Source: Solirubrobacter deserti
Lineage (GTDB): Bacteria > Actinomycetota > Thermoleophilia > Solirubrobacterales > Solirubrobacteraceae
Direction: 5' to 3'
Length of the DNA stretch: 64,000 nucleotides
Assembly (NCBI RefSeq): GCF_027587175.1
Contig: NZ_JAPCID010000012.1
Location: 1-64,000, forward strand
The position numbers and the translations under genes are program-made. Each line of letters opens with the position of its first letter. The stretch's first letter is position 1. Below the pieces are notes generated by a model. The model searched no databases. It was not told where the DNA came from and saw only the letters and a list, made by a program, of their open reading frames with translations. Shown here piece by piece: positions 37,993 to 39,769 of the stretch.

Positions 37993-38205
37993 GTGACCGC
38001 GCTTCTCGTCGGCGTCGCCGCGCTCGTCCTGGCCTTGGTCGGGCTGACGTTCCCGGGCGTGATCGCCGGCGCCGGCGCCGCCATGCTCGCCGGCCGCGCC
38101 TGGTCGGAGGCGAACCGCGACGTGCTGCTCGTCGCTCTCGGGTGCGGCGGCGCGGCCCTCGCGATCGGCTTCATCGCGCTGGTCGAAGTCGCGTACGCGG
38201 GTTAG
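37993..38205 (+). CDS. Small membrane protein (70 aa)
   Basis: Two hydrophobic segments (VGVAALVLALVGLTFPGVIAG; VLLVALGCGGAALAIGFIAL) joined by a short loop with AGRAWSEANRD. GTG start 9 bases after the reductase stop; 4-base convergent overlap with the regulator gene. Not recognised. Confidence 0.6.
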   Translation: MTALLVGVAALVLALVGLTFPGVIAGAGAAMLAGRAWSEANRDVLLVALGCGGAALAIGFIALVEVAYAG

Positions 38206-39260
38206 GCCGCGAGCAGGCCGAGCTCGTCCGCCCGTGCAACCGCCTCCGCGCGGTTGCGCACGCCGAGCTTGCGGAAGATCGAGGAGGCGTGCTGCTTGAC
38301 CGTGTTCGGCGACAGCCCGAGGTCTCGCGCGATCACCGGGTTGGTCGCGCCCGCGGCGAACGCGAACAGCACGTCCCGCTCGCGCGGGGAGACGCCGGCG
38401 CTCGGCTCGGTGCCGACGGGCTGGGCGATGGTGCCGTCGTCGCGCAGCGCGAGCGTCGGGACGCCGGGGAGGGCGAGCTCGGGCGCGCCGGCCAGGATCA
38501 GCTCTGGTGTCAGGCGCGCGGCCATGGCACGCGTGTCCTCGAGCGTGCGCGCGCCCGCGCAGGCCGCCACCCACGGGCGGCCGTGCAGCCACAGCAGGAT
38601 GCCGGCGCGGCGCACGTCCACCGGGTCGGCGACGAGCACCCGCAGCGGCTCGGCGGGCTCGGCGAACGGCTCGTGCGCTTCCGCGACGATCCCGAGGCGG
38701 CGTGCGGCGTGGACCGCTCCGGCGCGGTTGCGCGCGCCGAGCTTGTCGTAGATGCCGAGCATGTGGTGCTTGACCGTGCCCGGCGCGAGGAACATGTGCG
38801 CGCCGATCTCCGCGTTCGTGAGCCCTGCGCCGACCTGGCGCAGGATCTCGCGCTCGCGCGGCGTGAAGCGCACCGCGTCGTGCGGGGCGGGCGCCGGCTC
38901 CGGGGTGCCGCCGCGGGCGAGCTCCCGCACGGCGTTCAGGATGTCCCGCGCCGGAGCCTCGCGCGCGATCACGCCGTGCGCGCCCGCCGCGCGAGCGGTG
39001 CGCAGCGGCACGTCGTCCCACCGCGACGCCAGCAGCGCGGTCCGCGCGCCGGTCGCCGCGATCCGCTCGCACAGCGGCAGGCCCAGCCCGACGTCCACGA
39101 GCGCGAGGTCGTAGCCGGCCACGGGCTCGTCGCGCAGCGCACACCGTTCCACCCAGGGCACGCGCGTCAGCAGCCAGCGCAGACCGTTGCCCAGCACCTC
39201 ATTCGAGTCGACCACCAGCACGCGCACGTGGCGCGCTCTGGTGCCTTCCGCGACCAACAT
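38202..39260 (-). CDS. Tandem REC-HTH regulator (two receiver-LuxR modules in one protein)
   Basis: 352 aa. Module 1: receiver-like residues about 12-115 (VRVLVVDSNEVLGNGLRW, phosphoacceptor-like Asp in LALVDVGLG), then a LuxR helix-turn-helix at about 130-190 (FTPREREILRQVGAGLTNAE). Module 2: a degenerate receiver at about 207-285 (LRVLVADPVDVRRAGILLWL, with ELILAGAP where the Asp-bearing strand should be), then a second helix-turn-helix at about 290-350 (VSPRERDVLFAFAAGATNPV). The duplication in one chain is unusual. Start ATG39260 has GGAG directly adjacent, so GTG39227 is also possible. The ACT-domain gene lies 57 bases upstream on the same strand. Confidence 0.85.
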   Translation of the reverse strand: MLVAEGTRARHVRVLVVDSNEVLGNGLRWLLTRVPWVERCALRDEPVAGYDLALVDVGLGLPLCERIAATGARTALLASRWDDVPLRTARAAGAHGVIAREAPARDILNAVRELARGGTPEPAPAPHDAVRFTPREREILRQVGAGLTNAEIGAHMFLAPGTVKHHMLGIYDKLGARNRAGAVHAARRLGIVAEAHEPFAEPAEPLRVLVADPVDVRRAGILLWLHGRPWVAACAGARTLEDTRAMAARLTPELILAGAPELALPGVPTLALRDDGTIAQPVGTEPSAGVSPRERDVLFAFAAGATNPVIARDLGLSPNTVKQHASSIFRKLGVRNRAEAVARADELGLLAA

Positions 39261-39317: not shown

Positions 39318-39563
39318 TCAACGGCTGCTCACACCGAGCACGTCGATCGCCCCCTCCAGACGCCCCCGGAGCAGCTGCAGATGGCGTTCGTCGGCGCTCA
39401 CGGCGAGCTCGATCCGGTCGTGCGCGTACGTCATGGCCAGGACGCGCGCGCCGCGGCGCTGGCAGATTCCGAGCACGCGCAGCAGAACTCCGGGGCGGTC
39501 GAGGACCTGCACGGACAGCCGCGTGACGGAGGAGGGGGCGACGCCGGGGGGAAGGAGCAGCAT
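39318..39563 (-). CDS. ACT-domain protein (IlvM-like)
   Basis: 81 aa from ATG39563, preceded by an AGAAAGG ribosome site. A single ACT domain (VTRLSVQVLDRPGVLLRVLG, then RRGARVLAMTYAHDRIELAV) like the small IlvM regulatory subunit of acetohydroxyacid synthase, which binds valine or isoleucine. No ilvB, ilvN or ilvC is in the window, so it is an orphan. The upstream leader peptide (39664-39732) has four Ile codons before a terminator hairpin, which fits control by isoleucine supply. The downstream gene is the tandem REC-HTH regulator, probably on the same transcript. Confidence 0.78.
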   Translation of the reverse strand: MLLLPPGVAPSSVTRLSVQVLDRPGVLLRVLGICQRRGARVLAMTYAHDRIELAVSADERHLQLLRGRLEGAIDVLGVSSR

Positions 39564-39638
39564 GGGAGACCTTTCTCGTCCCCGAAGAGAAGCTGCCCGC
39601 GCGCGCACCACCCGCCGACGTTCCCCCAGGAACGACAG

Positions 39639-39665
39639 AGGCCCGCGGTGGAGTTCCGCGGGCCT
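39639..39665 (-). terminator. Attenuator hairpin before the ACT gene
   Basis: AGGCCCGCGG and CCGCGGGCCT form a perfect 10-bp stem around a 7-base loop. The stem overlaps the last bases of the leader-peptide stop codon and lies 76 bases before the ACT start. A ribosome paused on the Ile codons would cover its first arm. Confidence 0.7.
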
Positions 39666-39732
39666 AGCGAATGATGATGGCGATGGAGCAGGCGAAGCCG
39701 TTCGACACGAGATCTGTGGCGAACGGCTCCAT
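39664..39732 (-). CDS. Isoleucine-rich leader peptide (22 aa)
   Basis: Short ORF starting MEPFATDL and ending SIAIIIR, with the codons ATC-GCC-ATC-ATC-ATT just before the TAG. A -10 hexamer (TAGAGT) lies 8 bases before the ATG with a -35 17 bases further, so the mRNA is probably leaderless. Within it, AGCCGTTCG (39720-39728) can pair with CGAACGGCT (39696-39704), giving an alternative hairpin. Classic leader-peptide attenuation of branched-chain amino-acid genes is the best interpretation. Confidence 0.62.
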   Translation of the reverse strand: MEPFATDLVSNGFACSIAIIIR

Positions 39733-39740
39733 TGCGTCTG

Positions 39741-39769
39741 ACTCTACACGGTCAGCTTGAAGCGGCCAA
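39741..39769 (-). promoter_or_regulatory. Promoter for the Ile leader/ACT unit
   Basis: -35 TTGGCC (39769-39764), exactly 17 bases, -10 TAGAGT (39746-39741), then 8 bases to the leader ATG at 39732. It overlaps the last codons of the chemoreceptor gene. Confidence 0.5.

What the first reader, a model, noticed from the sequence alone, without database searches (positions are those of the whole stretch)
39639..39769. Isoleucine-coding leader peptide with terminator hairpin upstream of an orphan ACT gene
Seen: a -35/-10 pair (TTGGCC-N17-TAGAGT), a leader ORF starting 8 bases later, four Ile codons in its last six sense codons, a TAG overlapping a perfect 10-bp hairpin, then an IlvM-like ACT gene with its own ribosome site. 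Known: ilv operons of many bacteria use such leaders. Unusual: the leader appears leaderless, starts inside the end of a chemoreceptor gene, and controls an orphan ACT gene instead of a synthase.
Basis: partly seen in the sequence, partly recalled or inferred. Interest (0 to 1): 0.75.

Follow-up and report, generated by a model that had tools for sequence, protein, structure and literature searches.

The report
Isoleucine-sensing leader before orphan ACT gene
A short reading frame ending in isoleucine codons and a conserved RNA fold sit directly before a small regulatory-domain gene in Solirubrobacter and related soil bacteria, and probably turn that gene up when isoleucine runs short; this is a known kind of switch with an unusual target and layout.

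Summary
On the minus strand a 22-codon ORF (39732-39664, MEPFATDLVSNGFACSIAIIIR*) starts 8 nt after a TANNNT box, has no Shine-Dalgarno sequence, and its stop overlaps a perfect 10-bp hairpin. An 81-aa IlvM/IlvN-like ACT gene (39563-39318) follows. The host is a Solirubrobacter.

All six Solirubrobacter genomes and seven genomes of other genera carry the same layout before a stand-alone ACT gene, at unrelated genomic sites. In a class sample of 398 genomes, the ten genomes with this ACT family were exactly the ten with the leader. An RNA model also found one leader not used to build it, and the next gene was again a stand-alone ACT. Shared by 13 of 13: TANNNT 7-10 nt before the start, no SD, a run of Ile/Val/Leu codons, and an ATT codon near the stop (ATT is 1 of 176 Ile codons in window genes). 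The last codons also pair with RNA downstream of the hairpins, with compensatory changes.

Best reading: a leaderless leader-peptide attenuator responding to isoleucine. The hairpin has no U-tract, so 'terminator' is unproven. Leaderless Ile/Val/Leu leaders before ilvB are known in Actinobacteria; new here are the target and the conserved RNA architecture, absent from Rfam.

The parts
39741..39769 (-). Promoter-like boxes: TTGGCC (39769-39764), 17 nt, TAGAGT (39746-39741), overlapping the last codons and stop of the chemoreceptor gene
   Evidence: Sequence; TANNNT ending 7-10 nt before the leader start in 13 of 13 loci; -35 weak, no sigma-70 consensus hit
39664..39732 (-). Leader peptide ORF, 22 codons MEPFATDLVSNGFACSIAIIIR*, no SD, probably leaderless; Ile codons between 39684 and 39670, ATT at 39672-39670
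   Evidence: homologous leaders in 12 other genomes
39694..39730 (-). Hairpin A: GGAGCCGTTCG (39730-39720) pairs with CGAACGGCTTC (39704-39694), joining the leader start region to the codons just before the Ile run
   Evidence: Fold; pairing kept across lineages, swap test p = 0.0014 with one sequence per lineage
39639..39665 (-). Hairpin H1, perfect 10 bp, 5' arm begins inside the TAG stop; no U-tract after it
   Evidence: pairs kept with compensatory changes; no terminator hit
39619..39634 (-). Hairpin H2, CGTTCC/GGAACG, with compensatory changes in relatives
39667..39672 (-). Basal stem P0, 5' strand: last Ile codon and the following codon (ATTCGC)
   Evidence: Swap test p = 1.5e-4 (11 sequences), 0.006 (one per lineage); compensatory pairs
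39610..39615 (-). Basal stem P0, 3' strand (GCGGGT), downstream of H2
39570..39576 (-). SD-like AGAAAGG of the ACT gene
   Evidence: Sequence, conserved in the five syntenic Solirubrobacter loci
39318..39563 (-). Stand-alone ACT-domain gene, 81 aa, like the AHAS small subunit (IlvM/IlvN)
   Evidence: Pfam ACT_5; best NCBIfam hit PRK11152 (IlvM) below cut-off; best PDB fold match IlvN 5ypp

Best explanation
This is a cis-acting, ribosome-mediated attenuator. Transcription starts at or within a few bases of the leader AUG, and a ribosome loads on the leaderless end and translates the 22-codon peptide. With enough charged tRNA-Ile, the ribosome passes the Ile codons and leaves at the stop; the last codons then form basal stem P0 with the segment after H2, enclosing H1 and H2, and the ACT gene is kept low. 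When isoleucine is short, the ribosome stalls on the final Ile codons (one always the rare ATT), sits on the 5' strand of P0 and the foot of H1, the fold cannot close, and the ACT gene is expressed. Shown here: the ORF, the promoter spacing, the Ile/ATT conservation, the conserved pairings, and the one-to-one link with the ACT family. Inferred: the stall, the direction of control, and whether the closed fold stops transcription or translation. The ACT protein is probably a regulatory subunit for acetolactate synthase, which would close an isoleucine feedback loop.
For: All six genus genomes have the leader before a stand-alone ACT, including one at a non-syntenic site with a 33%-identical ACT. 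Seven more genomes in other genera, one of them in another family, have it. The RNA model found one leader it was not trained on (G203, E 5.5e-6) and its next gene is a stand-alone ACT. In a class sample, the ten genomes with a member of this ACT family (E < 1e-22; next-best hits at about 1e-11 or weaker) are the ten with the element. TANNNT 7-10 nt before the start and no SD, 13/13. Ile is 38 of 117 residues in the last nine positions against 4 of 179 elsewhere; ATT is 18 of 42 leader Ile codons but 1 of 176 in window genes. P0 and hairpin A pass swap tests. A modelled stall on ATT drops H1 formation from about 1.0 to 0.02-0.14 in the five syntenic Solirubrobacter loci.
Against: No expression data. 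No U-tract after H1 in any homologue. A modelled stall does not consistently change SD accessibility, so neither standard output is demonstrated. In the other lineages stalling weakens H1 only partly, and not at all in G002. One diverged single-ACT gene (G204) lacks the element. In S. coelicolor, mutating candidate regulatory codons of the ilvB leader had no effect (reported in PMC1262725).
Confidence: 0.8

Rival explanations
1. Classical transcription attenuation: H1 is a true intrinsic terminator without a U-tract, and hairpin A and P0 are only pause or accessory structures.
For: H1 is strong, GC-rich and overlaps the leader stop like the ilvB leaders described in Actinobacteria (PMC1262725); a stalled ribosome would mask its 5' arm.
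Against: No U-tract in 13 of 13, unlike those ilvB leaders; the Ile codons lie after, not inside, the first hairpin, so there is no 1-2-3-4 order.
Confidence: 0.4
2. Translational attenuation: the closed fold hides the ACT start, as reported for leaderless polycysteine ORFs in mycobacteria and proposed for the LEU element of leuA.
For: P0 pairs the regulatory codons with downstream RNA; in Solirubrobacter the H2 5' strand can also pair just upstream of the SD.
Against: Pairing with the SD region fails the one-per-lineage swap test (p = 0.17); a modelled stall gives no consistent change in SD accessibility.
Confidence: 0.3
3. An RNA element read by a protein or small molecule, the ORF being decorative.
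For: The folded core is conserved; in S. coelicolor ilvB the leader codons were dispensable (PMC1262725).
Against: Codon-level signals (Ile cluster, ATT, short distance to the stop, start codon 7-10 nt from the -10) would not be kept in an untranslated element.
Confidence: 0.08
4. Chance: a short ORF and a GC-rich hairpin in a 72% GC genome.
For: Short ORFs and GC hairpins are common in such genomes.
Against: Recurrence in 13 genomes, most at unrelated sites, before the same ACT family.
Confidence: 0.02

Closest known systems
ilvB(N/H)C leader peptides of Actinobacteria (Corynebacterium, Mycobacterium, Streptomyces ilvL; PMC1262725, PMC8079986, PMC13236596)
   Same: Short ORF with Ile/Val/Leu codons overlapping a hairpin upstream of branched-chain synthesis genes; S. 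lividans ilvL is transcribed leaderless
   Different: Those precede the synthase operon and their terminators have poly-U runs; here the target is a stand-alone ACT gene, there is no U-tract, and the codons form a conserved basal stem. The genus's own ilvB1-ilvN operon shows no such leader
Leaderless polycysteine ORFs of mycobacteria (Canestrari et al. 2020, known here only through PMC9031893 and PMC13236596)
   Same: Leaderless short ORF whose run of regulatory codons controls a downstream gene
   Different: Cysteine, not isoleucine; different target genes; no shared sequence tested
LEU element of actinobacterial leuA (PMC1262725)
   Same: Run of regulatory codons pairs with downstream RNA to form a basal stem
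   Different: There the partner is the leuA SD; here it lies 46-63 nt after the stop and before the SD
E. coli ilvGMEDA leader (from general knowledge)
   Same: Branched-chain leader controlling an operon that includes the small ACT subunit IlvM
   Different: Classical terminator/antiterminator, SD-led leader, ACT gene cotranscribed with the catalytic subunit

Membership tests
Amino-acid leader-peptide attenuator | Short ORF upstream rich in codons of the relevant amino acid | tested here: met
   Ile 38/117 in last nine positions over 13 leaders
Amino-acid leader-peptide attenuator | Conserved RNA structure that a ribosome on those codons would disrupt | tested here: met
   P0 and H1 conserved with compensatory changes; modelled stall removes H1 in the syntenic Solirubrobacter loci, partly elsewhere
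Amino-acid leader-peptide attenuator | Downstream gene belongs to that amino acid's metabolism | tested here: inconclusive
   ACT resembles AHAS small subunits but is below family cut-offs and not next to a synthase
Amino-acid leader-peptide attenuator | Expression changes with amino-acid supply through leader translation | not testable with these tools
   Needs experiment
Classical transcription attenuator (trp/ilv type) | Intrinsic terminator: GC hairpin followed by U-tract | tested here: not met
   No U-tract in 13/13; no terminator hit in the window
Leaderless leader ORF | -10 box placed so that transcription starts at the start codon, no SD | tested here: met
   TANNNT ends 7-10 nt before the start, no SD, 13/13; TSS not mapped
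Any Rfam 15 family | Score above gathering threshold | tested here: not met
   No match
AHAS small subunit (IlvM, PRK11152 / TIGR00119) | Score above curated family cut-off | tested here: not met
   PRK11152 25.8 bits against 68; TIGR00119 23.2 against 56.9
AHAS small subunit (IlvM, PRK11152 / TIGR00119) | ACT fold closest to AHAS regulatory subunits | tested here: met
   Top PDB match IlvN 5ypp, E 1.2e-4, model pLDDT 91

The most novel reading that the evidence does not exclude
A so far undescribed Ile-responsive RNA element of Solirubrobacterales in which the regulatory codons themselves close a three-helix junction, and whose only target is a free-standing acetolactate-synthase regulatory subunit. 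Isoleucine shortage would then change the feedback behaviour of the synthase rather than its amount.
Probability: 0.3. Interest if true: 0.65.

Novelty: new variant of a known kind. Interest (0 to 1): 0.52.

Why it matters
It extends leader-peptide attenuation to a deep, little-studied actinobacterial order and to an unusual target: a stand-alone regulatory domain rather than a biosynthetic operon. It gives the orphan ACT family a likely physiological context (isoleucine supply) and a clear experimental entry. The near-exclusive ATT codon in a 72% GC genome suggests that slow wobble decoding of one codon is selected as part of the sensor, which can be tested directly.

Tried and rejected
Partnership with the second acetolactate synthase (ilvB2): all six genus genomes carry ilvB2 and the orphan ACT, but four other genomes with the ACT have only one ilvB, so strict pairing is not supported. 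SD sequestration by the H2 5' strand: good in Solirubrobacter, fails across lineages. Known RNA family: none. A match of the RNA model outside the order (G317, E 7e-5) lies in unrelated sequence with no leader ORF and is taken as chance. Weak model hits (E > 0.002) that I read were mostly inside coding sequence. A single-ACT-length ORF in G420 follows a synthase-like reading frame and is taken as IlvN, not an orphan. The 'control by chemoreceptor context' idea fails because the element has other neighbours in other genera. MAFFT shifts H1 of G199, G200 and G203 by two columns, so the pair counts understate H1; hand pairing is.

Full report
Setting. The window comes from a Solirubrobacter genome (G000, 7.55 Mb). 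The finding lies on the minus strand between a chemoreceptor gene and a gene for a LuxR-type regulator with two HTH matches.

Observation. The leader ORF starts 11 nt after the chemoreceptor stop, so only the promoter boxes overlap that gene. And there is no U-tract behind the hairpin, so nothing in the sequence shows that it is a terminator.

Conservation inside the genus. The ACT gene has orthologues 87-96% identical in four of five other Solirubrobacter genomes, in the same chemoreceptor-ACT-LuxR order. The leaders read MEPLPTHRALSGSPIAIIIIR, MKPFATPRVTNGFACIAIIIR, MEPFATPRVTNGFPCIIAIIR and MEPTATSAVTLGSACIAIIIR. The order of Ile and Ala codons is rearranged, while the Ile run, the stop codon and hairpin H1 stay put. 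The sixth genome (G002) lacks this orthologue but has a diverged stand-alone ACT gene (33% identity) elsewhere. That gene has its own leader MLRRRAIAISIASGTPCISIIAT*, a -10 box 8 nt before the ATG, and a GGCCTG/CAGGCC hairpin at the stop.

Conservation beyond the genus. Stand-alone ACT genes in G024, G220, G200, G013, G150 and G199 are preceded by leaders ending ...DIAIAT*...SIVIAIAT*...AIVLTITA*...QIAIAIRH*...SIAVITS* and ...AVVLSITT*. One diverged single-ACT gene, in G204, has no leader. A covariance model built on 11 of the elements (R1) found 13 strong hits in 231 genomes of the order. All are directly upstream of a stand-alone ACT gene, including G203, which was not in the model and whose ACT was not among the matches listed by the earlier protein search. 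In the window it gives one strong hit, E 1.9e-13; the next is E 0.19. In a class-wide sample of 398 genomes, a profile of the stand-alone ACT proteins gives ten hits at E < 1e-22 and then a gap to about 1e-11; the weaker hits I checked, or that sit beside ilvB, are IlvN. Those ten genomes are the ones in which the RNA model hits at E <= 5.5e-6. Element and ACT family therefore travel together.

Signals of translation. In 13 of 13 a TANNNT box ends 7-10 nt before an ATG or GTG, and there is no SD in the last 15 nt, which is what a leaderless start needs. Ile makes up 38 of 117 residues in the last nine positions and 4 of 179 elsewhere. Every leader has an ATT codon within four codons of the stop, and ATT is 18 of 42 leader Ile codons, although only 1 of 176 Ile codons in nine window genes is ATT. 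ATT is presumably read by the same GAU anticodon through wobble (general knowledge), so slow decoding may be the reason; this is inference.

RNA structure. Four helices recur. Hairpin A joins the start-codon region to the codons just before the Ile run (swap-permutation p = 0.0014, one sequence per lineage). H1 starts at the stop codon. H2 follows H1. P0 pairs the last two codons (offset -6 from the stop in most species) with RNA 46-63 nt after the stop. P0 shows clear compensatory change: ATTCGCTAG/CTGGCGAAT, TACCAGCT/AGCTGGTA, ACCACCTG/CAGGTGGT, ACCGCC/GGCGGT, with swap-permutation p = 1.5e-4 on 11 sequences and 0.006 on one per lineage. P0 encloses H1 and H2. Regulatory codons that are themselves a strand of the closing helix mean that a stalled ribosome and the closed fold exclude each other.

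Mechanism. I commit to an isoleucine-responsive, leaderless leader-peptide attenuator in which a stalled ribosome keeps P0 and H1 open. In simple occlusion modelling, a ribosome with ATT in the A site reduces H1 from about 1.0 to 0.02-0.14 in the five syntenic Solirubrobacter loci and partly in the others, not in G002. It does not consistently change SD accessibility, which argues mildly for an effect on transcription rather than on translation start. The lack of a U-tract argues the other way, so I leave the output step open.

Target. The ACT protein is predicted with confidence (pLDDT 91). Its closest solved fold is the E. coli AHAS regulatory subunit IlvN, and the best NCBIfam match for both proteins tested is IlvM, below cut-off. 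All six genus genomes also have an ordinary ilvB1-ilvN pair without leader and a second, unpaired large subunit ilvB2, but four genomes outside the genus have the ACT and only one ilvB. So it is probably an AHAS regulatory subunit, partner unknown.

Comparison. Leaders with Ile/Val/Leu codons overlapping hairpins are described before ilvB in Corynebacterium, Mycobacterium and Streptomyces (PMC1262725). The S. lividans ilvL is leaderless (PMC8079986), M. tuberculosis ilvB1 attenuation has experimental support (PMC13236596), and leaderless cysteine attenuators exist in mycobacteria (PMC9031893). Neither leaderlessness nor a branched-chain leader is new. New, as far as these searches show, are the stand-alone ACT target, the element's conserved P0/H1/H2 architecture without U-tract, its presence in Solirubrobacterales, and its absence from Rfam.

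Noticed in passing
L024 (G000:C200:701687-703357, minus) and orthologues L022, L023, L025-L027, about 180 nt upstream: The unpaired second acetolactate synthase gene (ilvB2) is preceded by two short ORFs: one leaderless-looking with TTACGAGTA in most copies (MTTRALRVRVLGLTAARVAVL* in L023) and one with an SD and Leu/Val codons (MLLVVL...) whose end overlaps the ilvB2 start. They look like a double Leu/Val leader.
   Followed up: partly
38202-39260 (-): A LuxR-type regulator with two HTH matches begins 57 nt after the ACT stop and is syntenic in five Solirubrobacter genomes; it might be cotranscribed with the ACT gene and so fall under the same leader.
   Followed up: partly
39583-39564 (-): In four of the five syntenic Solirubrobacter loci, and more weakly in the window, the ACT SD lies in the loop of a small hairpin whose stem varies by paired changes (GGGGAAC/GTTCCCC, AGGGAC/GTCCCT, GGGGA/TCCCC).
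   Followed up: partly
L091 (G204:C620): One diverged stand-alone ACT gene in the same genus as G199, G200 and G203 lacks the leader and directly follows the end of what looks like a dihydrolipoamide acyltransferase gene, a natural case of loss or of a different regulation.
   Followed up: no
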